Positions 8,474 through 48,296 of a stretch of 64,000 nucleotides of DNA are shown here, piece after piece. The notes beneath the pieces are model-generated. The model searched no databases and was not told the DNA's origin. It worked only from the letters and a program-made list of their open reading frames with translations. The DNA is from Chitinophaga pinensis (GTDB lineage Bacteria > Bacteroidota > Bacteroidia > Chitinophagales > Chitinophagaceae): contig NZ_VOHS01000012.1 of assembly GCF_007896845.1 (NCBI RefSeq), positions 62,001 to 126,000 on the forward strand. The letters run 5' to 3'. The position numbers and the translations under genes were made by a program. The first letter of the stretch is position 1. Every line of letters begins with the position of its first letter.

Positions 8474-8597
8474 TGTACTGTACTTATATTATACTCTTCT
8501 TGCTTTAATGCTGTAATGGAAACGGAAGATTAAGCTGGGGTGACTATTGTGTAAGGTAAAGATCGGGTAAGGATAGGTAGAGACATAAATTTGCTGC

Positions 8598-8745
8598 GGG
8601 TTGAGGTGGGACGCCGGGCTGACGCCCTTTTGCGAGGGGTGCTATTGGGCTGGTGAGGGTCGTGTTGGGTGGTGGTGGGGGGATTGAGCGCTGTCAAGCG
8701 GGGCAGGCTCTCAAGGGCTAAGGCCCTTTGTCTCCACCTCAACCC
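8598..8745 (+). repeat. dispersed palindromic element, copy A
   Basis: The left arm has GGGTTGAGGTGG then GGGC-TGAC-GCCC. The right arm has AAGGGC-TAAG-GCCCTT then CCACCTCAACCC, the complement of the left end. The shared core lies at 8640-8651 (TGCTATTGGGCT, reverse orientation). The same architecture recurs at 14423, 16071, 36791 and 47015. It sits in the convergent gap between the sulfatase and the sensor kinase. Confidence 0.85.
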
Positions 8746-8793
8746 CTCCGCTGATTATGTCGGGCGGTTGGGTAAGTGTGTTTAAAGCTTAAT

Positions 8794-13918: not shown

Positions 13919-14347
13919 ATGGCAACTTACTTACCTTTTAGTAACGATCGTGAAAATCAATTTGTTATGGTGAAAAATAGTGATGGAAAAATATGGATAG
14001 GGGATTGTCCGATACGGCAGGTGCTGGATCGTTTTGGCGATAAGTGGTCGATTCTGGTGATAGAGCTGTTGTCGCATGAGGGGAAGTCGCGGTTTAGTGA
14101 GATTGCGCAGATGATAGGGGATATTTCGCAGAAGATGTTGACGGTGACGTTGCGGTCGTTGGAGTCTGATGGGTTGATTACGAGGCAGTTTTTTCCGGAG
14201 ATACCGCCGAGGGTAGAGTATGCGTTGTCGGAGTTGGGGAGGAGTTTAGTGCCGCATATACAGCAGCTGACGAGTTGGGGGCAGGAGAATATGGAGGCGA
14301 TAAAGGAGAATAGGAGGAGGTTTGAGGAGAAGCAACGAGGTGATTAA
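13919..14347 (+). CDS. HxlR family winged-helix transcriptional regulator
   Basis: The 142-residue protein has the HxlR signature CPIRQVLDRFGDKWSILVIELL, followed by FSEIAQMIGDISQKMLTVTLRSLESDGLI for the recognition helix and wing, and a helical tail for dimerisation. It is divergent from the yceI operon and is its likely repressor or sensor. The first 16 residues are unusual for the family; ATG 13967 (MVKNSDGK) is a possible alternative start. The second half of the gene is very rich in GGG, AGG and TTG codons, unlike its neighbours. Confidence 0.88.
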   Translation: MATYLPFSNDRENQFVMVKNSDGKIWIGDCPIRQVLDRFGDKWSILVIELLSHEGKSRFSEIAQMIGDISQKMLTVTLRSLESDGLITRQFFPEIPPRVEYALSELGRSLVPHIQQLTSWGQENMEAIKENRRRFEEKQRGD

Positions 14348-14422: not shown

Positions 14423-14581
14423 GCCGGTTTCAGATGGGATTACGGGCTGACGCCCTCTACGCGTGCTGCTATGAGGCGTGGTAGGGGGATTGGGCAGGGG
14501 AAGGGGATTAAACATTGGTGCAGGGTCCCGGCGATGCGTAAAGGGCTAAGGCCCTTCATCTCCATCTGTAAACCTTCCGGC
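14423..14581 (+). repeat. dispersed palindromic element, copy B
   Basis: It reads GGGC-TGAC-GCCC near the left end and AAGGGC-TAAG-GCCCTT near the right, with outer arms GGTTTCAGATGG and CCATCTGTAAACC. The reverse core is at 14467-14478. Its reverse complement is highly similar over its whole length to copy C at 16071. It lies in the tandem gap between the HxlR gene and the dioxygenase gene. Confidence 0.87.
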
Positions 14582-16070: not shown

Positions 16071-16238
16071 GCCGTCAGGTTTGCAGATGGAGATGAAAGG
16101 GCCTTAGCCCTTCACGCATCGCCCGGCCCATGCACCAATGTTTAATCATCCCCCGTTGCCCAATCCCCCTACCACGCCTCATCGCAAGAACGCGTGGAGG
16201 GCGTCAGCCCGTCATCCCATCCGCAAATCTGACGCCGC
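16071..16238 (-). repeat. dispersed palindromic element, copy C
   Basis: In this orientation it starts with AGGTTTGCAGATGG, then GGGC-CTTA-GCCC, and ends with GGGC-GTCA-GCCC and CCATCCGCAAATCT. The core is CGCCTCATCGCA at 16175-16186. It is the inverted near-copy of element B, 1.5 kb away. It lies in the convergent gap 15691-16526, which besides this element, the 13 bp array and a terminator shows nothing I recognise. Confidence 0.87.
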
Positions 16239-36176: not shown

Positions 36177-36249
36177 GAGAGGAGTGTAATGATATAGGAG
36201 GGAATAGTGGATTGAAAGGAGGAATGGAGAAAAGGTAAGGAATGAATAG

Positions 36250-36700
36250 CAGATGACTAAAGGATTAGTAGATGAATAATGTGTGAATGGGCTGGACGAG
36301 AAAACACAGAAGCTTGATAGTAGAATGGAGAATGAATAGCAATGCATAAAGAATGATGAGAGAATAGAAGCGATAGAGAAGAAATAACAGTAAAAAAAAT
36401 AGATAGTAAATAATAGATGAATAGCGTGTGAACGGGCTGGAACAGAAGAAACAAAGTCTGGTAGTAGAATGGAGAATGAATAGCAATGCATAAAGAATGA
36501 TGAGAGAATAGAAGCGATAGAGAAGAAATAACAGTAAAAAAAAGATAGTAAATAATAGATGAATAGCGTGTGAACGGAGCAGGAATAGAAGAAACAAAGG
36601 GTTGGCTGTGGAACGGAGAAATTGGAGCGTGAATAGCAAGACGTAAAGAATAATAAGAGAATAGAATCGATCGGTAATAGGTCACAGACGAATAAAGAAT
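36250..36700 (+). repeat. purine-rich minisatellite, units of about 144-153 bp
   Basis: The segment TAGCAATGCATAAAGAATGA starts at 36337 and recurs at 36481 (exact for about 60 bases), with a diverged third unit at 36634. The forward strand is strongly purine-biased: only 13 of the 60 bases at 36481-36540 are pyrimidines. Short motifs such as GAATAG recur inside the units. All three forward frames are full of TAG stops. The reverse strand is open but encodes only Ser/Phe/Tyr-rich repeats, so I treat it as non-coding. Confidence 0.85.
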
Positions 36701-36790
36701 AAATAAAAAGAGATAACAAACAATACTTATCGTACGCAGCACATTGATAAAGTACTCATAAAAAACCATCGTACGGCATATTCAGCGGCA

Positions 36791-36936
36791 GGTTTCAGGA
36801 GGAGATCCCGGGCCTTAGCTCTTGAAGTATGCCGACACGTTGTCCCAGAGTTTAATCCCACTCCCCGCTCAACACGACCCACCACGCCCCATAGCAATAA
36901 CTTCAAGAGCGTCAGCCGGGGATCCCTCCTGAAACC
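36791..36936 (-). repeat. dispersed palindromic element, copy D
   Basis: The arms 36791-36828 and 36900-36936 pair at 32 of 37 positions, with one bulged A. The unpaired centre is CTTA in one arm and GTCA (TGAC on the other strand) in the other. The flanking tetramers have degenerated, so they pair between arms better than within an arm. The core CGCCCCATAGCA is at 36885-36896. It lies in the convergent gap 36177-37203. Confidence 0.85.
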
Positions 36937-36942
36937 GCACGC

Positions 36943-37047
36943 AGCAGCCCCGCAATTTTAAATACCTGCTTTAATAACAACAACCTCAAATAAACTATCA
37001 ACAGCAGCCCCGCAATTTTAAATACCTGCTTTAATAACAACAGCCTC
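36943..37047 (+). repeat. 60 bp direct repeat, two units
   Basis: The stretch beginning GCAGCCCCGCAATTTTAAAT and continuing through CCTGCTTTAATAACAACA occurs twice with a spacing of exactly 60 bases, at about 36944 and 37004. It abuts the right end of palindromic element copy D. Confidence 0.85.
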
Positions 37048-37154
37048 CCTCCAAATACCTGTTAATAGCGCGCTTACGCAGCGTCCACTCACAGCAACTC
37101 CATATAACTTTTAATAACCCTCCCATGCTTAACAGCCCCCCGTGTAAATAAAAA

Positions 37155-37180
37155 AGCCGGACGGCAACCACCATCCGGCT
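37155..37180 (-). terminator. terminator of the SH3-protein gene
   Basis: AGCCGGACGG pairs with CCATCCGGCT around CAACCA. On the reverse strand it is followed by TTTTTTAT, 24 bases after the stop of the SH3-domain gene. Confidence 0.85.
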
Positions 37181-37203
37181 AATAAAATAAATTCCATGAC
37201 TCA

Positions 37204-37626
37204 TCACTCCACCGGCCGTAAATACTGCGCATGCGCATATCCTTCTTCGCCGTCTTTCGTTCTGATCAACCACCATTGATCACTATGCTTACTCACCAGT
37301 GAGACAATTTCTTTATGCCCCGCCTTCCCGATAATCGGCTGATCCGTCCCCGGACCTTTCCGCACATTCAGATTGGACGATTGCGTCACCACTTCCAGCT
37401 TAGCGCCTTCAACAGCGGTTGCCACTTTAATATCCATCACAACATCACCCGTAAGAAAATTCGGGTCAATCTTCCCATAAATATTCCAGAGATTATCCTT
37501 TACCGCACCACTCGGTGCTTCACCACTAATATGCAGCACACCATCTGTCTCATTCACCTGAAGATTGTCTGTGCCGGATGATCTGGCAGTATCAATCAGT
37601 TCTTTGTATTTGTCCTGTAATGACAT
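37204..37626 (-). CDS. SH3 domain-containing protein with N-terminal BON-like region
   Basis: A 140-residue protein. Residues 77-138 (LEVVTQSSNLNVRKGPGTDQPIIGKAGHKEIVSLVSKHSDQWWLIRTKDGEEGYAHAQYL) are a bacterial SH3 domain, usually a peptidoglycan or wall ligand-binding module. Residues 1-70 (NETDGVLHISGEAPSGAVKDNLWNIYGKIDP) resemble a BON or osmotic-shock-type module. No signal peptide is visible, which is odd for such a domain. It lies 20 bases downstream of a BON lipoprotein gene and probably shares its transcript. Confidence 0.82.
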   Translation of the reverse strand: MSLQDKYKELIDTARSSGTDNLQVNETDGVLHISGEAPSGAVKDNLWNIYGKIDPNFLTGDVVMDIKVATAVEGAKLEVVTQSSNLNVRKGPGTDQPIIGKAGHKEIVSLVSKHSDQWWLIRTKDGEEGYAHAQYLRPVE

Positions 37627-37646
37627 AAAACAATGAATTTAGAAGG

Positions 37647-38153
37647 TTATTTTACTTTCAGACCAGCAGCATCTACTTTCTTCGGATGCAGACCATCAAG
37701 CGCCTGTTTCAGTGTTTTCCATTTAGCGGCAGAGAGTTCACCGGTAACGCTCACGACACCGGCGTCTACTTTTACATCTACACCCGGGAAGTCTTTGGTG
37801 ATATCAGCTACCCCTGTACGAAGAGCTTCTTCAGCAGCATTCATAGGTACAGCGGTGGTATCCACAACAGGAGCTGGTGGAGCAGGAGGAGTGACCATGA
37901 TGTTATTGGTAATACTCTTTACACCGTCTACAGCAGCAACTTTGGTTTCTGCAGCAGTTCTTGCTGCGTCGTCAGGTACATTTCCCGCCAGGGTTACAAC
38001 ACCTTCTTTTACGTCAGCCGTTACTTCCGGCATGCCGCTGAGTTGTTCAGTTACTTTTGCCTGTATCTGTGTATCAGATGGTTTGCCTTTACAAGCTACC
38101 ATGAAAGCCAGTGCCAGACAGAGGAACGCGATGCTCAATTGTTTGTTTCTCAT
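37647..38153 (-). CDS. BON-domain lipoprotein
   Basis: A 168-residue lipoprotein: signal with lipobox LAFMVAC, then two BON domains (about 28-85 and 105-165; KEGVVTLAGNVPDDAARTAAETKVAAVDGVKSI and VDAGVVSVTGEL) joined by a Pro-rich linker (PPAPPAPVV). BON domains are thought to bind phospholipid membranes in the envelope and often respond to osmotic stress. The surrounding genes form a small same-strand group of envelope proteins. Confidence 0.88.
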   Translation of the reverse strand: MRNKQLSIAFLCLALAFMVACKGKPSDTQIQAKVTEQLSGMPEVTADVKEGVVTLAGNVPDDAARTAAETKVAAVDGVKSITNNIMVTPPAPPAPVVDTTAVPMNAAEEALRTGVADITKDFPGVDVKVDAGVVSVTGELSAAKWKTLKQALDGLHPKKVDAAGLKVK

Positions 38154-38198
38154 AAGAATTATAGATTGGATGGTTAAAAATTTTTCGGGGAGAGTGTT

Positions 38199-38723
38199 TT
38201 ATCTGAACATTTTGGTCAGATCGCTCAGGTCAACATCGCCGTCGCCGTCTTTATCAAAACCGAATTTGCCACCGATGTTGTTGATGGTGTTCTGGATGTT
38301 ACCGCCGCCGAGGTTGCCCAGACCGCCAGCCAGATTACCACCACCCAGTGAAGACAGGATATCCTGAATATTGAAACCGTTACCCGCGCCACCACTTTGC
38401 TGACCACCTTTCATGGCATTTAATACCGTTGGGATCAGTACAGCAGCGATGCTGGCAGCAGTAGAACCATTAATACCGAATTTCTCCATGATGTTGCCGG
38501 CGAAGTTCTGCTGGATATTCTGTGTTACCGGATGATCAGCTGATTCCAGTGCCTCATTTACCTGTTGTGTTTCACCGTTGGCTTGTAGTTGGCTGAAGGT
38601 AGAGAGGATCGTGCTCTGCGCTTCTGCGATTACGCCATCATTGTGCTCGTTAGGCACTTCCGGATTGTTGATGACAGATTGCAGACCGCTTTGCTGGATC
38701 AGTTGTGTTAATTGTTCTAACAT
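38199..38723 (-). CDS. DUF937-like protein with a C-terminal EF-hand-type calcium loop
   Basis: A 174-residue protein without a signal peptide. The first 110 residues are helical (LTQLIQQSGLQSVINN, then IMEKFGINGSTAASIAAVLIPTVLNAMK), matching the DUF937-type pattern. A Gly/Asn-rich stretch follows. The C-terminus DKDGDGDVDLSDLTKMF has the acidic spacing of an EF-hand or dockerin calcium loop. The function is unknown. It is the first gene of the group with the BON and SH3 genes; a TAccTTTG promoter lies upstream. Confidence 0.78.
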   Translation of the reverse strand: MLEQLTQLIQQSGLQSVINNPEVPNEHNDGVIAEAQSTILSTFSQLQANGETQQVNEALESADHPVTQNIQQNFAGNIMEKFGINGSTAASIAAVLIPTVLNAMKGGQQSGGAGNGFNIQDILSSLGGGNLAGGLGNLGGGNIQNTINNIGGKFGFDKDGDGDVDLSDLTKMFR

Positions 38724-38752
38724 AAAAGAGTTTTATAAGGTAAATAAGATGA

Positions 38753-38760
38753 CAAAGGTA
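38753..38760 (-). promoter_or_regulatory. promoter -7 box of the DUF937-BON-SH3 gene group
   Basis: TACCTTTG on the reverse strand matches TAnnTTTG, 29 bases upstream of ATG 38723. The remaining gap to 39018 contains nothing I can name. Confidence 0.55.
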
Positions 38761-39018
38761 TGGAACCTTATAACAATCTTATCTATAGGTTGGTTCATAA
38801 CAAATATGTTACCAGAAAAATGATAATTAATTAACTGGTGTGCACACAGACAATTGTTAGGTGGGGAAGTGAACATCTGTACTTCATTATAGTTGCTGTG
38901 GTCAGCTGATATAGCTTGTGTGAGCAATGAGCACTGAGGTGATATAGAAAGACGTTACAACAGGAAAGACTTCCTCACCCTGTTGCGGTTGGGCATCGCA
39001 TGTTTGTGTCCAAATAAA

Positions 39019-39054
39019 AAACGGGTCATATCAGATAAATGATACGACCCGTTT
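39019..39054 (-). terminator. terminator of the suf operon
   Basis: AAACGGGTC pairs with GACCCGTTT around a smaller inner TATC/GATA stem, followed on the reverse strand by TTTTTTATTT. It lies 20 bases after the last suf gene. Confidence 0.9.
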
Positions 39055-39073
39055 ATACTGAGGTTTGGTTGTT

Positions 39074-39391
39074 CTACATGAAGCCCAATTCTAATCTGGC
39101 TTCTTCACTCATCATATCTTTGTTCCATGGTGGATCAAAAGTGAGTGTTACATCTACATCGGATACGCCTTCTACATCTCTTACTTTTTCGTCGACTTCA
39201 CGAATGATATCGCCCGCTACGGGACAACCCGGAGCAGTCAGTGTCATAGTGATGCCAATGCGGTTATTCTCGCCTATTCTTATTTCATAGACAAGACCCA
39301 GCTCTAATATATTCACCGGAATTTCCGGATCATATACTGTGCGCAGTACCTCTTCAATCCTATCGCGTAAGGTCATTGTATTTTCGCTCAT
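39074..39391 (-). CDS. DUF59/MIP18-family iron-sulfur assembly protein (SufT-like)
   Basis: A 105-residue protein of the DUF59 family. It shows VYDPEIPVNILELGLVYEI at the start and TLTAPGCPVAGDIIREVDEKV with the conserved cysteine in the middle. Such proteins help deliver or mature Fe-S clusters. The start overlaps the sufE stop by four bases. It is the last gene of the suf operon. Confidence 0.9.
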   Translation of the reverse strand: MSENTMTLRDRIEEVLRTVYDPEIPVNILELGLVYEIRIGENNRIGITMTLTAPGCPVAGDIIREVDEKVRDVEGVSDVDVTLTFDPPWNKDMMSEEARLELGFM

Positions 39392-39834
39392 AGTTCTGTG
39401 CCGTTTTTTTGTGATTGAGATTTTGCCTCGTAGGCAACTGCATATAACTTAATCTGTTTGAGCATACTCAGTAACCCGTTGGAACGGGTAGGGGAGAGAT
39501 GATTACTCAAACCGATAGCGTCTATAAAGTATATTTCAGATTCCGCGATCTCTTTAGGCGTATGACCGGAGAATACGGTTACCATGAGACTCACCAGTCC
39601 TTTGGTAATTACGGCATCACTGTCTGCTGTAAACACCAGTTTACCGTCCTGCATTTCCGTGTGCAGCCATACCTGCGACTGACAACCTTTAATCAGGTGA
39701 TCAGGCGTTTTATATTTATCGTCTATCAGCGGAAGTTCCTTGCCCAGTTGAATAATGTGCTCGTATTTATCCATCCAGTTCTCCATAAAGGAGAAGTCTG
39801 ATATAAGTTCGTCCTGTTGTTCTTTGATAGTCAT
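39388..39834 (-). CDS. sufE: cysteine desulfuration protein SufE
   Basis: A 148-residue SufE. The active-site cysteine lies in HLIKGCQSQVWLHTEM, which receives persulfide sulfur from SufS and passes it to SufB. The N-terminal helix region FSFMENWMDKYEHIIQLGKELP is typical. It begins seven bases after the sufS stop and overlaps the DUF59 gene by four bases. Confidence 0.95.
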   Translation of the reverse strand: MTIKEQQDELISDFSFMENWMDKYEHIIQLGKELPLIDDKYKTPDHLIKGCQSQVWLHTEMQDGKLVFTADSDAVITKGLVSLMVTVFSGHTPKEIAESEIYFIDAIGLSNHLSPTRSNGLLSMLKQIKLYAVAYEAKSQSQKNGTEL

Positions 39835-39841
39835 AATCCTG

Positions 39842-41089
39842 TTATCTTAACATAGAGACAGCCTTTTTTATGCCTGCCACTAATCTGTCTATATCTTCGA
39901 AGGTAGTATACACTGCGAATGATGCGCGCACGGTGCCCGGAATACAGAAGAAATCCATTACAGGTTCTGCGCAATGGTGACCTGTACGGATGGCGATACC
40001 TTGTTTATCCAGCAGTTCGCCGAGATCGTATGGGTGAATATCATACACGAGGAAGGAAACGGCGCCGGAACGGTGTCTCGGATTACCGATAAAGCGGATG
40101 CCTTCAATCTGTTGGAGCTGCTGTACGGCATATTCCACCAGTTGTTCTTCCCATGCCTGTATATTTTCTACACCGATCTGCTGTACATATTGCACGGCTG
40201 TACCCAGTGCGATGGCTCCGCTGATATCCGGCGTACCTGCTTCAAATTTGTAGGGCAGTACGTTGTAGATAGTTTTAGCGAAGGTCACGGTTTTGATCAT
40301 ATCGCCACCACCCTGATAAGGCGGCAGGCGATCCAGCCATTCTTCCTTGCCATAGAGCACACCGGTACCGGTAGGACCGTAGATCTTATGACCGGAGAAT
40401 ACGAGGAAGTCTACATCCAGCTCCTGCACATCTACCGGCATATGCTGTACTGCCTGTGCTGCATCCAGCAGAACAGGAATGTTACGGGCATGTGCCTGGG
40501 CAATAATGTCGCGTACGGGATTAACGGTGCCGAGGGAGTTGGATACGTATGTAACAGCGATGATCTTTACTTTGTCGGTCAGCAATGCGCTGAATTCGTC
40601 CATGAGCAGTTCGCCTTTTTCATCCATAGGGATGATTTTCAGTTCTGCACCACGGTCTTCACACATCATCTGCCACGGAACGATATTGGAGTGATGTTCC
40701 ATAGCGGATGCCAGTACCACGTCGCCGGGTTTGATCTCACCACGACCAAAAGAATAGGCGATCAGGTTGATACCATCGGTAGTGCCTTTGGTAAAAATGA
40801 CTTCTTCCGGTTTGCGGGCATTGATAAAGGAGGCGATGATTTTACGTGAGTTTTCGTAAGCATTGGTTGCTTCCTGACTCAGGTGGTGTACGCCACGGTG
40901 CACGTTACTGTTGATGCGGGTATAGTATTCTATCAGCGTATCCAGTACAACCTGCGGTTTCTGGGTAGTGGCCGCATTATCAAGATATACAAGCGGTTGG
41001 CCGTATACTTTTTCCTGTAACAGCGGGAAGTCCTTTCTGATCTTTTCTACGTCTAGTGCCGGAACAGTGATGTCTGGTACGTGTTGCAT
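39842..41089 (-). CDS. sufS: cysteine desulfurase SufS
   Basis: A 415-residue PLP enzyme of the type II (SufS/CsdA) class. The PLP lysine is in FSGHKIYGPTGTGVLYG. The catalytic cysteine is in RTGHHCAEPVMDFF, in the shorter loop of this class. The N-terminus IRKDFPLLQEKVYGQPLVYLDNAATTQKP is canonical. It removes sulfur from cysteine and hands it to SufE. It is separated from sufD by 95 bases that hold a perfect hairpin. Confidence 0.96.
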   Translation of the reverse strand: MQHVPDITVPALDVEKIRKDFPLLQEKVYGQPLVYLDNAATTQKPQVVLDTLIEYYTRINSNVHRGVHHLSQEATNAYENSRKIIASFINARKPEEVIFTKGTTDGINLIAYSFGRGEIKPGDVVLASAMEHHSNIVPWQMMCEDRGAELKIIPMDEKGELLMDEFSALLTDKVKIIAVTYVSNSLGTVNPVRDIIAQAHARNIPVLLDAAQAVQHMPVDVQELDVDFLVFSGHKIYGPTGTGVLYGKEEWLDRLPPYQGGGDMIKTVTFAKTIYNVLPYKFEAGTPDISGAIALGTAVQYVQQIGVENIQAWEEQLVEYAVQQLQQIEGIRFIGNPRHRSGAVSFLVYDIHPYDLGELLDKQGIAIRTGHHCAEPVMDFFCIPGTVRASFAVYTTFEDIDRLVAGIKKAVSMLR

Positions 41090-41126
41090 AATACTCTATA
41101 ATTTATCGTTCTTCTCTGAAGCATCA

Positions 41127-41157
41127 GAGGTCATCCGGGATGAACCTGGATGACCTC
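41127..41157. other. hairpin between sufD and sufS
   Basis: GAGGTCATCC and GGATGACCTC form a perfect 10 bp stem with an 11-base loop in the only sizeable internal gap of the operon downstream of sufB. No T-run follows on the reverse strand, so it may protect or process the mRNA rather than end it. Confidence 0.6.
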
Positions 41158-41184
41158 GTGCAAAGATCGGAATTTCTGATCGAA

Positions 41185-42504
41185 TTAGTTATTGATAGCG
41201 CCGGCTACATACTGGCGGATCTTTTCTGCGAGGAAATCCTGTAATGCCGGTATGTGTACCTGATCGGTAATGTCAAATGCGAAAGCATTCACCAGCAGTG
41301 ACTTGGCGGCTTCTTCACCAATACCACGGGAACGCAGGTAGAAGAGAGATTCTTCACTGAAGCGTCCTACGGTAAAACCGTGGCTGCACTTCACGTCATC
41401 TGCATATATTTCCAGCTGTGGCTGAGAGTTGATGTTGGCCTTTTCGCTCATCAGCAGGTTATTGTTCTGCTGGAAAGCGTTTGTTTTCTGCGCATCCTGA
41501 TGTACGTGGATCTTACCGGTGAATACACCGTTAGCGTCGTCCAGCAGTACACCTTTATACAGCTCATTACTGTTACAGTTTGGCACGAGGTGATCCACGA
41601 AGGTGTGGTTATCTACGTGCTGGGTACCTGTAGCCAGATAGAGACCGTGCAGATTGGTTTCCGTATTGCTACCTGTCAGCGCTACGCTCAGGTTGTTACG
41701 GGTCAGTTCTGCGGAAGGCAGGGTGAAGTTAAAATGATGATAGCGGCTATCAGCTTTCTGGGTAGCAGAAGTATGATAGATGTGGCGGCTGTTTTTAATG
41801 GTGCTCTGGATATTGTAGTGCCAGAGTTCAGCATTTTCTTCCAGTACCACTTCTGTTACTGCGTTCACGAAGGCGATGGCGGAGTCATTGAGACCTACAG
41901 CGCTTTCGATGATTTCCAGTGTTGCGCTTTTATGCAGCACTACCAGATGGCGTGGCTGTATAAATGCGTTAGCGGAAGCTGTATATACGTGAATGATCTG
42001 TATTGGTTTGTCAAGCGTTGCATTGACACCAGCTTCGATAAAGAGACCGTCTGCAAACAGTGCCGCGTTCAGTGCTGCGAATGGCTGCGACTGCAGATGC
42101 GGGTGTTTGTCAAACCATGCCTGCAGCTGTGCGTTACCGGCTGCATCGCTCAGTTTGGAAACGGTGATCTTACCACCAGCCGGCAGTTCGGAAAGATCCG
42201 TCTGCAGGCGTCCGTTCACCAGTACAACGCGGTAGCTGTCCAGTTGAGGGATGCTGGCTGCTTTCAGTTGCTCAGGTGTAACAGTTGCCTGTTCTTCCTG
42301 TGCGAGAGTGAAAGCATCTTTCAGAAAGCGCTGTACGTTGGTATAGCGCCACTCTTCTGTTTTAATGGTAGGCAGACCCAGTTCCTTGAAGCGGCTGAAA
42401 GCCAGCTTACGTGCAGGCATGATTGCGTTATCCGCATCCACTTTCTGCTCAGGTCCGGGTACCCCATTGGATATAAATTCGTAGAATGATTTATCGCTCG
42501 TCAT
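41185..42504 (-). CDS. sufD: Fe-S cluster assembly protein SufD
   Basis: A 439-residue member of the SufB/SufD beta-helix family. The N-terminal helices (FKELGLPTIKTEEWRYTNV) are followed by the beta-helix core and the conserved DDVKCSHGFTVGRFSEESLFYLRSRGIGEEAAKSLLVNAF segment. It forms the SufBCD scaffold with SufB and SufC. It starts 13 bases after the sufC stop. Confidence 0.95.
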   Translation of the reverse strand: MTSDKSFYEFISNGVPGPEQKVDADNAIMPARKLAFSRFKELGLPTIKTEEWRYTNVQRFLKDAFTLAQEEQATVTPEQLKAASIPQLDSYRVVLVNGRLQTDLSELPAGGKITVSKLSDAAGNAQLQAWFDKHPHLQSQPFAALNAALFADGLFIEAGVNATLDKPIQIIHVYTASANAFIQPRHLVVLHKSATLEIIESAVGLNDSAIAFVNAVTEVVLEENAELWHYNIQSTIKNSRHIYHTSATQKADSRYHHFNFTLPSAELTRNNLSVALTGSNTETNLHGLYLATGTQHVDNHTFVDHLVPNCNSNELYKGVLLDDANGVFTGKIHVHQDAQKTNAFQQNNNLLMSEKANINSQPQLEIYADDVKCSHGFTVGRFSEESLFYLRSRGIGEEAAKSLLVNAFAFDITDQVHIPALQDFLAEKIRQYVAGAINN

Positions 42505-42517
42505 GGTTCTTTTTGCG

Positions 42518-43282
42518 TTATACAGATTCTTTCTGGTGTACCTCTTCTTTCAGCCAGTCGTAGCCTTTCTCTTCCAGTTCCAGCGCCAGTTCTTTGGTGC
42601 CGGTCTTTACGATCTGACCGTTGTACAATACGTGTACGAAGTCAGGCACGATGTATTCCAGCAAACGCTGGTAGTGGGTAATAACCATAAAAGCCTTATC
42701 TGCATTGCGCAGTTTATTAACACCTGCTGCAACGATACGCAGTGCGTCAATATCCAGGCCGGAATCAGTTTCATCCAGTATAGCTAATTTCGGATCGAGC
42801 ATAGCCAGCTGGAACACTTCATTCCTTTTTTTCTCACCGCCGGAGAAACCTTCATTCAGAGAGCGGTTCATCAGGTTGGCGTTAAAATCTACCAGTTGCT
42901 GTTTTTCTTTGGTCAGCTTCAGGAATTCTTTGGATTCCAGCGGAGGCAGATTGTGGTAAGTCCTGATCTCATTTAAGGCAGTCTTGAGGAAGTGCAGGTT
43001 AGATACGCCTGGGATCTCAACCGGGTACTGGAATGCCAGGAACAGGCCTTCGCGTGCACGGTCTTCCGGAGACAGATCCAGCAGGTTTTTACCTTCGAAG
43101 ATCACTTCACCTTCTGTCACAGTATAATTTTCACGACCCGCTAACACAGAAGACAATGAGCTCTTTCCTGAGCCGTTAGGGCCCATGATGGCGTGCATTT
43201 CACCTTTCCTGATTTCCAGGTTGATGCCTTTCAGGATCTTTTTACCGTCTACTTCTGCGTGCAGATTTTTAATCGTCAGCAT
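42518..43282 (-). CDS. sufC: Fe-S cluster assembly ATPase SufC
   Basis: A 254-residue ABC-type ATPase with Walker A GPNGSGKSS, signature FSGGEKKR and Walker B LAILDETDSGLDID. The FSGGEKKRNE and DETDSGLD forms are specific to SufC. It energises cluster assembly on SufB-SufD in the cytoplasm. Confidence 0.97.
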   Translation of the reverse strand: MLTIKNLHAEVDGKKILKGINLEIRKGEMHAIMGPNGSGKSSLSSVLAGRENYTVTEGEVIFEGKNLLDLSPEDRAREGLFLAFQYPVEIPGVSNLHFLKTALNEIRTYHNLPPLESKEFLKLTKEKQQLVDFNANLMNRSLNEGFSGGEKKRNEVFQLAMLDPKLAILDETDSGLDIDALRIVAAGVNKLRNADKAFMVITHYQRLLEYIVPDFVHVLYNGQIVKTGTKELALELEEKGYDWLKEEVHQKESV

Positions 43283-43325
43283 GATTGTATGTTTCTCTGT
43301 TGTTTTTGCTTTGAAAATGTTTTTA

Positions 43326-44771
43326 TTATCCTACGCTACCTTCCAGTGTGATAGAGAGCAGTTTGCGTGCTTCCACGGCAAATTCCATCGGAAGCTGGTT
43401 CAGCACTTCCTGTGCGTAACCATTTACGATCAGTGCAACTGCTTTTTCTGTTTCTATACCACGTTGATTAAGATAGAAGATCTGATCTTCCCCGATCTTG
43501 GAAGTAGTTGCTTCGTGTTCAACGGTGGCAGTACTGTTCCTTGATTCGATGTAAGGGAAGGTGTGTGCACCACAACGATCACCGATCAGCAGGGAGTCAC
43601 ACTGTGTAAAGTTACGTGCATTGGCAGCACGTGGTCCAACCTGTACCAGTCCGCGGTAAGTATTATCGCTGAGGCCAGCGGAAATACCTTTGGAAATGAT
43701 ACGGCTGCGGGTATTGCGGCCAAGGTGGTAGATCTTGGTACCGGTATCAGCGATCTGCTTGTTACGGGTTACTGCTACTGAATAGAATTCACCTTCAGCA
43801 TCATCGCCCTGCAGGATCACACTCGGATATTTCCAGGTGATAGCAGAACCGGTTTCTACCTGTGTCCATGAGATCTTGCTGCTTTTACCCTTACAGATAC
43901 CACGTTTGGTTACGAAGTTGTAGATACCGCCATTACCGTCTTTATCACCGGGATACCAGTTTTGTACAGTAGAGTATTTGATCTCTGCGTGGTCCATCGC
44001 AACGAGTTCCACTACTGCAGCATGCAGCTGGTTCTCATCACGTCTTGGCGCCGTACAACCTTCCAGATAGCTTACGTAGGAATTATCGTCAGCAATGATC
44101 AGGGTACGTTCGAACTGACCTGTGTTTTCCGCGTTGATACGGAAATAGGTGCTCAGTTCCATCGGACAGCGTACGCCTTTTGGAATGTATACAAAAGAAC
44201 CGTCGGAGAATACTGCTGCATTCAGGGCGGCAAAGATATTATCAGAGTGAGGTACTACAGTACCGAGGTATTTTTTAACCAGATCAGGATGGTTTCTTAC
44301 CGCTTCCCCGAAGGAGCAGAAGATAATGCCCAGTTCCTGTAATTTGGCTTTGAAAGTAGTGGCAACGGAAACGCTGTCAAATACAACGTCTACAGCAACG
44401 CCGGCCAGTGCTTTCTGTTCATTGATAGGAATACCCAGTTTTTCGAAGGTAGCCAGCAGTTCAGGATCTACTTCGTCCAGGCTGCCCAGCTGTTTCTTCT
44501 TCTTGGGAGCAGCATAGTAGGAGAGTTTCTGAAGGTCCAGTTCCGGCATTTCAAAATGCTGCCATTTAGGGAACTGCATCTTTTTAAATGCCTGAAAACC
44601 CTTCAGACGCCATTCCAGCATCCATTCCGGCTCTTCTTTTTTGGCAGAAATAAAACGGATGGTGTCTTCATTCAGACCCACCGGCGCCATTTCCATTTCA
44701 ATGTCGGTAGTGAAGCCAAACTCATATTCCCGGTTGGCTATGTCATCAATTATTTCGTTGCTGTTTCTCAT
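43326..44771 (-). CDS. sufB: Fe-S cluster assembly protein SufB
   Basis: A 481-residue SufB, the scaffold where the cluster is built. Characteristic segments are [52 protein letters not shown] and the C-terminal [19 protein letters not shown], with the conserved cysteine of the CDSLLIGD loop. It follows sufA after 49 bases and precedes sufC by 43 bases. Confidence 0.97.
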
Positions 44772-44820
44772 TTTCCGAGTTAATTAAGTAATGCAGAAGC
44801 TTGCTGGTGATAATTGGGAA

Positions 44821-45150
44821 TTATACCGCAAAGCTTTCCCCACAGCTACAGGTACGGGTAGCATTAGGGTTGTTGAAATAAAGCCCCTTGCCGTTGAGAC
44901 CATCGGAATAATCCAACTCAGTGCCGTACAGGTACAGGAGGCTTTTCATCTGCACCACAATTTTAACACCTTTATCTTCAAAGGTCTGATCACCATCCTC
45001 ATGCTCCGAATTTTCAAACTTCAACACATATTCCAGTCCTGAGCAACCGCCACCTTTTACGCCAACGCGTACGAAAGTACCGGGAGCATGGTTCTCCTTG
45101 ACCATAAGGTCTTTTATATATTCGCCTGCTTTTTCTGATACTGTTATCAT
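44821..45150 (-). CDS. sufA: A-type iron-sulfur carrier (SufA/IscA/HesB family)
   Basis: A 109-residue A-type carrier with the three conserved cysteines: one in GVKGGGCSGLEYVL and two in the C-terminal TCSCGESFAV. It accepts a newly built cluster from SufBCD and delivers it to target proteins. It is the first gene of the operon. The 98 bases upstream, to the reductase stop, hold no promoter box I can identify with confidence. Confidence 0.93.
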   Translation of the reverse strand: MITVSEKAGEYIKDLMVKENHAPGTFVRVGVKGGGCSGLEYVLKFENSEHEDGDQTFEDKGVKIVVQMKSLLYLYGTELDYSDGLNGKGLYFNNPNATRTCSCGESFAV

Positions 45151-45248
45151 ATTGCTTCCTTTTATACAGATTTCACCATATTATGATAATGCGTGGTGAG
45201 ATTATTTACCTGACGTTTGTTTTATCGGGAAATTGTAAATACTTCCGC

Positions 45249-45830
45249 TCAGAGATTATCATTCACATTTACCAGAGGGATTCTTTCCCCGATTCTGGCA
45301 TCTCCTAATAAAGAGATCATTCTGTCGAACTTATTCTTATATGACGTGGTAAATGTTTTAGTCTCCTGGTCATAAAGATGTTCTTTCATAATGGGTACTG
45401 AAAACGGAAGCACCCATGCCCTGAGGGCTTTCGCTACCGAATCCATTGCATTAATACCCTGCATGGCCTGAGAACCGTCTCCCCAGCACACCAAAGCTAC
45501 AACCTTTCCCGTTAAATAAGGATTACTGAGCTTGCTGGTCATTTCCAGCCAGTCCAGGGCATTCTTCATGACACCCGTCATACTGCCATGATAAAGCGGA
45601 GTGAGCCATACATGGACATCCGCCTTGCAGAAGGCATCACACATTTTTTTAACGGATCCGGGCATTTCTCCCTTGGGATATGCAAAGAACGGAATATGGC
45701 CGTCAACAGGGCTGAACACTTCCGTAGAAAATCCTTTTTGGCGGAACTGTTCTTCGAAGTAGCCCGTCAACTGATTGGCAGTTGTATAGGGGCTGCTGTC
45801 CATTGTGCCGTTGAAGATCAAGACGTTCAT
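45249..45830 (-). CDS. NAD(P)H-dependent FMN reductase-like (flavodoxin-fold) oxidoreductase
   Basis: A 193-residue flavodoxin-like protein. The FMN phosphate loop is at NGTMDSSPYTTAN, and the second flavin motif is TPLYHGSMTGVMKNALDWLE, typical of the NADPH-dependent FMN reductase/azoreductase group. It should pass electrons from NAD(P)H via FMN. It precedes sufA on the same strand by 98 bases and is divergent from the SufR-like regulator. A role in supplying electrons or handling oxidative stress for Fe-S assembly is inferred from position only. Confidence 0.85.
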   Translation of the reverse strand: MNVLIFNGTMDSSPYTTANQLTGYFEEQFRQKGFSTEVFSPVDGHIPFFAYPKGEMPGSVKKMCDAFCKADVHVWLTPLYHGSMTGVMKNALDWLEMTSKLSNPYLTGKVVALVCWGDGSQAMQGINAMDSVAKALRAWVLPFSVPIMKEHLYDQETKTFTTSYKNKFDRMISLLGDARIGERIPLVNVNDNL

Positions 45831-45852
45831 TTAAAATTCTCCTGTTTTAAGC

Positions 45853-45868
45853 TGTTGTTCTGGCAACA
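45853..45868. promoter_or_regulatory. candidate operator of the SufR-like regulator
   Basis: TGTTG-TTCTGG-CAACA is a 5-6-5 inverted repeat in the divergent gap, within the predicted leader of the reductase gene. Cyanobacterial SufR binds CAAC-N6-GTTG; the half-sites here are in the opposite order, so this is suggestive only. Confidence 0.4.
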
Positions 45869-45885
45869 AATTTTTTTAACTCCTA

Positions 45886-45913
45886 CAAAATTACGACATT
45901 TGAGAATAAAACA
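45886..45913 (-). promoter_or_regulatory. promoter of the reductase gene
   Basis: On the reverse strand TTG (about 45912) is followed after 18 bases by TAATTTTG (45886-45893). The leader to ATG 45830 would be about 50 bases and contains the candidate operator. Confidence 0.55.
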
Positions 45914-45922
45914 AGTAATAAC

Positions 45923-46585
45923 TTGGAAAATTATAGACCCATCACAAAAGCAACTGCCGACAAGTTTCTGCAGTTACTCAAAACGAAGGGGCCTCAATCG
46001 GCCGCTATGTTAGCTGCCGCCTTAGGTATAACAGGAGAGGGCGCCCGCCTGCAGCTGCTGAAGCTTGCAGAAGAAGGGCTTGTGGTGTCGGCTACCAGCT
46101 CAAGAGGAGTAGGCCGGCCTGTTCAGATCTGGGATCTCACACCACTTGGCCATGCCCATTTTCCGGATACACACGTAGAGCTGACACTGCAATTAATAGA
46201 AACCATCCGCCGCGAACTGGGGGAGGCCGCACTTGAAAAAGTAGTGGCCGCCCGCGAATTCCAGCAACAGGAGAAATATATGAACGCCCTGACAGGCATC
46301 AGCAGTCTGGCAGAAAGACTGGCTCAATTCGCCACTATCCGTTCCTCCGAAGGCTATCTTGCCGAATGGAGAGAGGAAGAGGACGGTTTCATATTCATTG
46401 AAAATCATTGCCCTATCTGCTGTGCTGCCACTCAATGCGCAAACATCTGCGAATCTGAGCTGAAAACCTTCCGCAGCCTCATGGGCGACGACGTAGAAGT
46501 CAACCGCATCGATCATATCATTGCCGGTAACCGCCGCTGTGTATATAAGATCACCAAAACAAAAGAACTCGTTGCCAGCCGTTAA
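45923..46585 (+). CDS. SufR-like winged-helix regulator with C-terminal cysteine cluster
   Basis: The 220-residue protein has an N-terminal helix-turn-helix (about 8-75, LLKTKGPQSAAMLAAALGITGEGARLQLLKLAEEGLV, then the wing GVGRPVQIWDLTPLG). After a helical middle comes ENHCPICCAATQCANICESEL and a final NRRCVYKIT. The pattern of histidine and cysteines followed by CESEL matches the Fe-S binding region of SufR. It probably senses cluster status and controls the divergent reductase and suf genes. The start is a TTG at 45923: no in-frame ATG exists between the upstream stop and 46007, and the latter would destroy the DNA-binding domain. Confidence 0.82.
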   Translation: MENYRPITKATADKFLQLLKTKGPQSAAMLAAALGITGEGARLQLLKLAEEGLVVSATSSRGVGRPVQIWDLTPLGHAHFPDTHVELTLQLIETIRRELGEAALEKVVAAREFQQQEKYMNALTGISSLAERLAQFATIRSSEGYLAEWREEEDGFIFIENHCPICCAATQCANICESELKTFRSLMGDDVEVNRIDHIIAGNRRCVYKITKTKELVASR

Positions 46586-46611
46586 AAAACGACTGCTTAT
46601 AAATAACTACA

Positions 46612-46642
46612 AAAGGGGATGTCCACAGGATGTCCCCTTTCT
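46612..46642 (+). terminator. terminator of the SufR-like gene
   Basis: AAAGGGGA pairs with TCCCCTTT around an inner TCC-ACA-GGA stem, followed by CTTTTTT, 27 bases after the stop codon. Confidence 0.8.
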
Positions 46643-47014
46643 TTTTTCTGCCCGCAACCGCCCCATATATGCTCACCCGACACGTATATTATTATACATT
46701 GATCCGGATGATTGCTTATATTGATGTTATTTTCACCTTAGGTAATGATGCGGACGAAAACAGGAGGATAATCAGCGGTAATTACCTACAATAGGGGAGA
46801 CACACCAGCTGATAATACGGAGATAAGGTGGACATGAGGTGGACCTGATCGGAATAAAAGAGAGAGAAAATAGTATTATAATAAGTAGATAAGCAGGCAG
46901 AAAAAAGAACTCCTCTTTTTACAAATCATAGGCATTTTAAGATTTTAGCACTGCCATCAGTAAGCATATATGCAAATACACCTCCAATTTTTCAAAAAAG
47001 ACAATTCATGCAGC

Positions 47015-47165
47015 GGGTTTGAGAAGGAGCTGTCGGGCCTTAGCCCTTTGCAGCGCCCCACACGACTGACAGCGCCTCATCGCATGCCCAGCCCAACCCC
47101 GCCCTGACAACGCCCCATAGCAAGTCACTGCAAAGGGCATCAGCCCGACAGCCCTTCTCAAACCC
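47015..47165 (-). repeat. dispersed palindromic element, copy E
   Basis: This is the best preserved palindrome. Arms 47015-47053 and 47128-47165 pair at 34 of 38 positions with one bulged A; the only unpaired block is the tetranucleotide inside GGGC-CTTA-GCCC versus GGGC-ATCA-GCCC. The core CGCCCCATAGCA is at 47111-47122. It lies in the convergent gap 46586-47196. The rest of that gap is purine-rich around 46780-46910 and shows no gene. Confidence 0.88.
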
Positions 47166-47196
47166 AGAGCCGTATGTCCCAAAGACTAACTTCCAA

Positions 47197-48217: not shown

Positions 48218-48296
48218 ATAGTCTGACTATACTCATCCTTCGTTAATGCTACGTTATAAACGGAGGATTAACGAAGGATGAGTATAGTCAGACTAT
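48218..48296. terminator. perfect 30 bp inverted repeat downstream of the AI-2E/GNAT operon
   Basis: The arms 48218-48247 and 48267-48296 are perfectly complementary over 30 bases and enclose a 19-base loop that itself contains CGTT/AACG. It lies 55 bases after the stop of the acetyltransferase gene on the reverse strand. The arms are not GC-rich and there is no T-run, so a plain intrinsic terminator is doubtful. Confidence 0.7.

What the first reader, a model, noticed from the sequence alone, without database searches (positions are those of the whole stretch)
36791..47165. Arms of the palindromic element covary within each copy
The outer arm is GGGTTGAGGTGG in copy A, GGTTT(A)CAGATGG in B, GGTTTCAGGAGG in D and GGGTTTGAGAAGG in E, yet in each copy the other arm is its complement. 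The inner end also covaries: TACGC in both arms of B, CACGC in both arms of C, CTTGAAGT in both arms of D, CTTTGCAG in both arms of E. Copy E pairs at 34 of 38 positions and D at 32 of 37. This argues that a folded DNA or RNA form is selected, or that arms are copied from one another.
Basis: seen in the sequence. Interest (0 to 1): 0.75.

Follow-up and report, generated by a model that had tools for sequence, protein, structure and literature searches.

The report
Folded intergenic repeats in Chitinophaga
This soil bacterium carries dozens of 150-letter non-coding repeats that keep folding into the same hairpin while their letters change, which points to a selected folded form, probably RNA, whose job is not yet known.

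Summary
The window has five copies (A-E) of a ~150-nt element whose arms differ between copies yet stay complementary. The own genome has at least 58 copies; two relatives have 74 and 39. In a sequence-only alignment of 191 copies, a phylogeny-aware test puts stem pairs at ranks 1-14 of 11,325 column pairs. Copies sit at orthologous sites in three species, where stems diverge 6%, loops 21% and flanks more. Between the covarying helices lies a conserved unpaired 4x4 loop (5' CUUA / 3' NNCA); its core persists in another genus with different stems. A selected folded form is well supported. Arm-to-arm copying is not: it should erase the loop and would not slow the stems. RNA or single-stranded DNA is open: G.U-type intermediates exceed A.C in the best-paired columns, but two cruder counts disagree. 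It resembles REP elements but fails tested REP criteria (no Y1 transposase in the own genome, unit too long) and has no Rfam match. Best reading: a strand-specific RNA hairpin in 3' regions that limits read-through or protects 3' ends. Main rival: an old mobile unit. Mixed arrays run -...+, never +...-, in all sets examined; this is unexplained.

The parts
36789..36938 (+). Copy D, whole element as matched by covariance model R1
   Evidence: 129.2 bits
36791..36802 (+). D outer 5' arm, pairs with 36925-36936; unpaired A follows at 36803
   Evidence: fold
36804..36813 (+). D middle 5' helix, pairs with 36915-36924 (36810/36918 mismatched)
   Evidence: fold
36814..36817 (+). D internal loop, 5' side (CTTA)
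36818..36828 (+). D inner 5' helix, pairs with 36900-36910
   Evidence: fold
36911..36914 (+). D internal loop, 3' side (GTCA)
47014..47166 (+). Copy E, whole element as matched by R1
   Evidence: 141.4 bits
47015..47027 (+). E outer 5' arm, pairs with 47153-47165; unpaired A follows at 47028
   Evidence: fold
47029..47038 (+). E middle 5' helix, pairs with 47143-47152
   Evidence: fold
47039..47042 (+). E internal loop, 5' side (CTTA)
47043..47053 (+). E inner 5' helix, pairs with 47128-47138
   Evidence: fold
47139..47142 (+). E internal loop, 3' side (ATCA)
8596..8747 (-). Copy A, same family
14424..14575 (-). Copy B, same family
16076..16231 (+). Copy C, same family

Best explanation
The element is a strand-specific folded molecule, most likely RNA. 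The A/C-rich strand (here called +) folds into a long hairpin: three helices, a conserved 4x4 internal loop (5' CUUA opposite 3' NNCA), in most copies a bulged A, and a weakly structured terminal loop (71 nt in D, 74 in E). SHOWN: the fold is selected (covariation, slow stems, conserved unpaired bases), and copies are inherited at fixed sites in three species. LEANING: the + strand is the folded one (excess of G.U-type intermediates in the best-paired columns). INFERRED: it is transcribed as a 3' extension of neighbouring genes, a protein or RNP recognises the internal loop, and hairpin plus C-rich/G-poor sequence acts as a 3'-end stabiliser or Rho-type read-through limiter, as proposed for REP/BIME elements (recalled).
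For: Phylogeny-aware covariation: in 191 copies, ranks 1-14 of 11,325 column pairs are nested stem pairs, 13 of them at E<=0.05; in 166 copies, all 6 significant pairs are stem. Parsimony over 21 pairs: 56.5 double compensatory changes against 0-6 when the partner is slid by 1-3 columns; WC->GT 52 versus WC->AC 23; GT->WC 20.4 versus AC->WC 1.0. Isolated mismatches inside helices: 94 GT, 18 AC, 124 other; unique contexts 52, 16 and 70. At 79 ortholog pairs stems differ 6.4% and loops 20.8%; 119 pairs changed on both sides versus 19.1 expected, 82 of them still paired. Loop bases C, T, T, A / C, A present in 159-165 of 166 copies. Same GGCCTT and CAGCC core in 7 of 8 copies of another genus with different stems. 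0 of 169 copies overlap a called gene; convergent sites outnumber divergent 38 to 11 of 105. C/G ratio 3.09 in loops and 2.34 falling to 1.54 over 400 nt on the 3' side, versus 1.07 in 20 control flanks of the window. Rho is encoded.
Against: No transcript data. No clear promoter enrichment upstream on the + strand: the full Bacteroidetes-type pattern 0 of 126 (shuffled mean 0.8); one looser pattern 7 versus 4.2. T-run after the + strand hairpin in only 8 of 169. E lies 374 nt past a terminator-like site at 46612-46640, and D 217 nt past one at 37180-37155 on the other side, so read-through RNA may be scarce (consensus matches, numbers near the shuffled mean). The GT preference is not seen in two cruder counts: ortholog one-sided transitions, 71 GT-type versus 84 AC-type (my sum of the list), and a whole-arm alignment, 169 GT versus 316 AC. 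In one search one slid control (-1) gives 43 versus 19, similar to the real 52 versus 23. The C-rich loop is absent in the filiformis clade (C/G 1.07) and weak in G067 (1.34); the convergent bias does not repeat there (filiformis clade 6 convergent, 5 divergent; G043/G061 1 and 4). Two loci of G068 share the whole spacer between their - and + copies, which fits a mobile unit better.
Confidence: 0.47

Rival explanations
1. Single-stranded DNA hairpin of a non-autonomous mobile element (REPIN/MITE-like), perhaps moving as a composite [- copy, spacer, + copy] unit: a transposase recognises the folded strand, so each subfamily keeps complementary arms; present copies are mostly old, retained insertions.
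For: Multi-copy, intergenic, patchy among species: 17 of 79 genus genomes at E<=0.01 with R1, 18 of 79 with R2, many copies in some and few or none in others. At the E site the nearest downstream ORF of at least 80 aa is within 172 nt in 17 of 18 loci outside the clade. G.T wobble would also be favoured in ssDNA. The constant -...+ polarity resembles terminal repeats of a unit, and in G068 two different loci (L120, L121) share their whole spacer, 70.8% over 212 nt; short spacer ends are also alike among L012, L017 and L120.
Against: Copies are orthologous across three species and their stems are still constrained there, which dead insertions would not show. No Y1 transposase in the own genome; Y1 occurs in 4 of 17 element genomes and 15 of 62 others. 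No element in 10 fetched Y1 loci, but only 2 of these are from element-rich genomes. Most of the 22 spacers tested share nothing beyond their orthologs.
Confidence: 0.3
2. Arms are kept complementary by copying from each other (quasi-palindrome template switching or gene conversion between arms), without selection.
For: Both-sides-changed pairs are common even at orthologous sites, and these genomes hold other long palindromes.
Against: The 4x4 internal loop persists unpaired between well-paired helices in nearly all of 166 copies, and its core in 7 of 8 copies of a second genus. Stems diverge about a third as fast as loops; copying predicts no slowing. The wobble bias, if real, is strand-specific.
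Confidence: 0.08
3. DNA-level cruciform or protein-binding site between convergent genes (for example a gyrase or nucleoid-protein site, as recalled for BIMEs).
For: More convergent than divergent sites in G000/G068/G035; position beyond terminator-like sites at D and E; the mixed wobble counts fit a strand-neutral form.
Against: Strand asymmetry of composition and of the internal loop; GT excess; the convergent bias is not repeated in other clades.
Confidence: 0.12

Closest known systems
REP elements (GTAG- and CGTC-tagged families; RAYT-associated)
   Same: Multi-copy, intergenic, palindromic; subfamilies with alternative complementary stem bases, G.T pairs in stems, preference for unidirectional and convergent gene pairs (passages of PMC3733652).
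   Different: About 150 nt with ~38-bp arms and a ~70-nt loop instead of a 20-40 bp unit (size from its abstract); no GTAG or CGTC tag noticed by eye at the hairpin ends; no Y1 transposase in the own genome; conserved 4x4 internal loop.
BIME / REPIN (inverted REP pairs)
   Same: Long hairpin made of two inverted arms; clustered copies; suspected mRNA 3'-end and Rho-dependent roles (recalled, no call).
   Different: In several subfamilies (for example TGGC-CTTA-GTTC) an arm cannot form its own hairpin while the long-range helix is kept (sequences); mixed arrays have one polarity.
ERIC / YPAL-type palindromic repeats (recalled)
   Same: Imperfect palindromes of 127-170 bp in intergenic regions, thought to act in RNA.
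   Different: No sequence comparison was made; here the arms covary deeply and copies are retained across species.
Rfam families
   Same: Structured-RNA signature.
   Different: No family reaches its gathering score in the window; one sub-threshold hit in four loci lies off the elements.

Membership tests
RAYT-associated REP | A REP-associated Y1 transposase in the genome | tested here: not met
   PF01797: 0 matches in G000; 19 of 79 genus genomes have one, 4 of 17 with elements and 15 of 62 without; G068 and G035, rich in elements, have none
RAYT-associated REP | Elements flank the transposase gene | tested here: inconclusive
   0 R1 matches in 10 fetched Y1 loci, of 28 Y1 matches listed; only 2 of the 10 (G015, G017) are from element-rich genomes
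RAYT-associated REP | Unit of 20-40 bp | tested here: not met
   Full model matches are 132-160 nt; 46-53 nt copies in G035 are loop-deleted forms, three of them at sites where relatives hold full copies
RAYT-associated REP | Terminal GTAG or CGTC tag | tested here: inconclusive
   None noticed by eye at the ends of the 18 aligned copies; a GGAG lies inside the outer stem; no formal scan
RAYT-associated REP | Many intergenic palindromic copies with complementary stem variants | tested here: met
   58 copies; 0 of 169 in called genes; covariation
MITE | Target-site duplication and insertion polymorphism | not tested
   Flanks were printed without a formal search; three species share sites
Intrinsic terminator | T-run directly after the hairpin | tested here: not met
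   8 of 169 on the + strand, 37 of 169 on the - strand, at 8-68 nt
Rho-dependent terminator | C-rich, G-poor region upstream of the stop point | tested here: inconclusive
   Seen in loop and 3' flank of 169 copies; loop enrichment missing in 45 filiformis-clade copies; stop points unknown
Structured RNA family | Covariation beyond phylogeny, conserved unpaired bases | tested here: met
Structured RNA family | Transcribed and folded in the cell | not testable with these tools
   no RNA data

The most novel reading that the evidence does not exclude
A previously undescribed family of structured RNAs, found in at least two genera of one bacterial family, whose conserved core is a 4x4 internal loop (CUUA opposite NNCA) held between freely covarying helices and read by an unknown partner. 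It occurs in dozens of site-specific, conserved copies per genome, in arrays of one obligatory polarity (5' ends facing each other), as a transcription-boundary system for long intergenic regions.
Probability: 0.35. Interest if true: 0.78.

Novelty: new variant of a known kind. Interest (0 to 1): 0.6.

Why it matters
Multi-copy bacterial palindromes are often treated as selfish or decaying DNA. Here copies are conserved at their own sites in three species, with stems changing more slowly than loops and flanks, and the core of an internal loop survives near-complete turnover of the surrounding helix between genera. That makes a folded, recognised form directly testable and offers a natural set of compensatory mutants. 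The fixed -...+ polarity is a rule without a settled explanation.

Tried and rejected
RAYT/REP membership: no Y1 transposase in the own genome and no association in the genus. Rfam: nothing at gathering; one sub-threshold hit (EF3314_EF3315, 33.1 bits against 100) lies off the elements. Own promoters: Bacteroidetes-type patterns (consensus recalled, no call) are not clearly enriched on the + strand; one looser pattern gave 7 versus 4.2 shuffled. Shared cargo between - and + copies: mostly none, but L120 and L121 of G068 share a whole spacer; I had first overlooked this and ran to check. Two small self-folding hairpins per arm (REP-like): the arm's own GGGC/GCCC complement is lost in several subfamilies. 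Crude wobble counts gave no + strand preference or the reverse; I rely on isolated-mismatch and tree-based counts. One search leaves out 5 poorly paired columns of 26, chosen, where all 26 give 121 GT and 75 AC.

Rows dropped: one spurious own-genome hit in a gene (C19) before alignment A1 (18 of 19 kept); 10 of 89 ortholog pairs (orientation mismatch or under 120 aligned bases); 2 of 171 listed elements for lack of a fetched locus; 3 loop-deleted G035 copies; near-identical copies before the covariation tests (166 of 208 kept; 25 of 29 distant copies added). A2 and A3 contain antisense readings of some loci and were not used for counts. The gene caller is simple and misses some genes, for example the HxlR gene at 13919-14347 beside copy B, so single contexts may be wrong.

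Full report
WHAT IS THERE. Five copies of one element lie in the window: A 8596-8747 (-), B 14424-14575 (-), C 16076-16231 (+), D 36789-36938 (+), E 47014-47166 (+). The exact 10-mer GGGCCTTAGC gives 19 own-genome hits, 18 of them elements. A covariance model (R1) finds 58 places in G000 (150 of 532 candidates scored), and 75 and 41 matches in G068 and G035, which are 74 and 39 distinct places once antisense readings are removed.

IS THE COVARIATION REAL. I aligned non-redundant copies by sequence only (MAFFT), built a FastTree tree, and compared an APC-corrected G statistic with alignments in which the same substitutions are re-dealt among columns along the tree, an R-scape-like null. With 166 copies, 6 column pairs reach E<0.05 and all 6 are stem pairs, 92-99% paired, in the outer, middle and inner helices (60 simulations). 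With 25 further copies (of 29 from six more genomes; 191 in all), ranks 1-14 of 11,325 pairs are stem pairs and 13 have E<=0.05 (100 simulations, so E-values are coarse). Joint parsimony on 21 well-paired columns counts 56.5 changes of both sides on one branch, versus 0-6 when the partner column is slid by 1-3. At least 20 arm pairs are found in 55 of 58, 70 of 74 and 32 of 34 copies of G000, G068 and G035; in shuffled copies 2, 3 and 0; in copies with swapped arms 17, 27 and 14. Copy A is an exception, with 15 arm pairs in its minimum-energy fold.

NOT RECENT INSERTIONS, AND CONSTRAINED IN PLACE. Masked flanks show many loci to be orthologous between G000, G068 and G035, with flanking DNA mostly 80-96% identical. 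For 79 orientation-consistent ortholog pairs (of 89 reciprocal best pairs), stem positions differ at 6.4% and loops at 20.8%. For the 25 single-copy pairs the figures are 5.8% and 16.6%, and in those pairs adjacent flanks are only 58-78% (5' side, first 100 nt) and 49-64% (3' side) identical, gaps counted as differences. Pairs changed on both sides number 119 against 19.1 expected under independence; 82 are still standard pairs (both directions and overlapping species pairs are counted, so cells are not independent). At the E site, 9 of 30 fetched orthologous loci hold the element (one, in G035, as a 46-nt loop-deleted copy). In 17 of the 18 loci outside the clade the nearest downstream ORF of at least 80 aa, in any frame, starts within 172 nt; three clade members (G001, G041, G017) lack the element there. 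So the element arrived or expanded in part of the genus (17 of 79 genomes with R1; 18 of 79 with R2; the single R1 match of G049 lacks the core, and is not found by R2) and was then kept.

ARM COPYING IS UNLIKELY TO BE THE CAUSE. In 166 copies the loop bases C24, T25, T26, A27 and C124, A125 are present in 159-165, while the flanking pairs 22:127, 28:121, 29:120 and 30:119 vary and stay paired. A process that copies one arm into the other should erase a mismatched block in the middle of the helix. The bulged A is less constant (at least 70% of 166 copies). In G067, G043 and G061 much of the stem differs from the window's, yet CCTT...CAG is kept in the copies read (one G043 copy has a one-base gap there). 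In G080, another genus of the family, 8 weak model matches (E 1e-6 to 6e-3) show long paired arms of different sequence; 7 of 8 keep GGCCTT and 7 of 8 keep CAGCC. A shallow family scan with R1 found only genus members (2 of 294); with R2, 4 of 60 genomes in 3 of 59 genera (the single match of G110 is partial, E 0.004).

WHICH STRAND FOLDS. Mismatches isolated between intact pairs are 94 G.T, 18 A.C and 124 other on the + strand (52, 16 and 70 unique contexts). On the tree, WC->GT is 52 and WC->AC 23; GT->WC is 20.4 and AC->WC 1.0. This favours folding of the + strand, as RNA or single-stranded DNA. Against it: ortholog one-sided changes give 71 GT-type and 84 AC-type (my sum of the list), a whole-arm alignment gives 169 and 316, and one slid control gives 43 and 19. 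I treat the strand as leaning to +, not settled.

SETTING. None of 169 copies overlaps a called gene. Of 105 intergenic sites in three species (not independent), 38 are convergent, 11 divergent, 48 unidirectional and 8 undetermined (simple gene calls); other clades do not repeat the convergent bias. The + strand is C-rich and G-poor: C/G 3.09 in the loop and 2.34 falling to 1.54 over 400 nt on the 3' side, versus 1.07 in 20 control flanks. The 3' flank ratio is 1.7-2.5 in the five other groups examined, but the loop ratio is only 1.07 in the filiformis clade and 1.34 in G067. Rho is encoded. A T-run after the hairpin is rare and there is no clear upstream promoter signal. Terminator-like sites lie between E and one neighbour and between D and one neighbour.

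A POLARITY RULE. In the mixed-orientation arrays seen, - copies come first and + copies second, so 5' ends face each other: -+ steps 7, 11 and 4 in G000, G068 and G035, 9 in the filiformis-clade loci, which were partly chosen because they hold clusters, and 6 among places less than 1 kb apart in G043, G061 and G067 (from the list); +- steps 0 in all of these. By my grouping of orthologs, the three-species set holds about 11 distinct loci. Of 22 spacers between - and + copies, most share nothing beyond their orthologs, but L120 and L121 of G068 share a whole spacer (70.8% over 212 nt), and short ends are alike among L012, L017 and L120. Some arrays may therefore descend from a composite unit, which would explain the polarity there; I could not test this further.

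VERDICT. A folded form is selected; the most likely form is RNA, and the most likely job is at 3' regions (end protection or Rho-type read-through limitation). That last step rests on composition and position only. It works like REP/BIME elements but is not filed as REP: the transposase and unit-size criteria were tested and not met. Searches of open-access papers (listings and the starts of abstracts only) and the passages seen of two papers (PMC12306157, PMC3733652) showed no description of it; most subscription papers are not in that library.

Noticed in passing
48218-48296: A second, unrelated palindrome: 38-nt arms, 95% complementary, 3-nt gap; similar sequences recur at other own-genome intergenic loci (L081, L083, L086, L092, L097, L009).
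   Followed up: partly
L181, L187, L190, L201 (downstream of the window:45923-46585 homologue): Other genomes of the genus hold long palindromes with 35-54 nt arms of different sequence in the same intergenic gap.
   Followed up: no
36249-36706: Imperfect tandem repeat of about 145 bp next to copy D.
   Followed up: no
36942-37047: Two direct copies of a 46-nt sequence, 98% identical, starting 60 bp apart, just 3' of copy D.
   Followed up: no
L009 (G000:C1:187500-194500), L077, L078: Between the same two genes (ybeY- and mnmG-like by recall) three species carry arrays of 5-6 elements in the order ---++ or ---+++, with about 290-310 bp units in G000.
   Followed up: partly
L120 and L121 (G068): Two different loci share the whole spacer between their - and + copies (70.8% over 212 nt), in opposite orientation, suggesting a duplicated composite unit.
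   Followed up: partly
G035:C1:3600512-3600564 and 8316572-8316624: Copies that lost the loop, leaving a 53-nt match at sites orthologous to full-length copies.
   Followed up: partly
L009 1968-2096: Sub-threshold Rfam match to EF3314_EF3315 (33.1 bits against a gathering score of 100) beside, not on, the elements.
   Followed up: no
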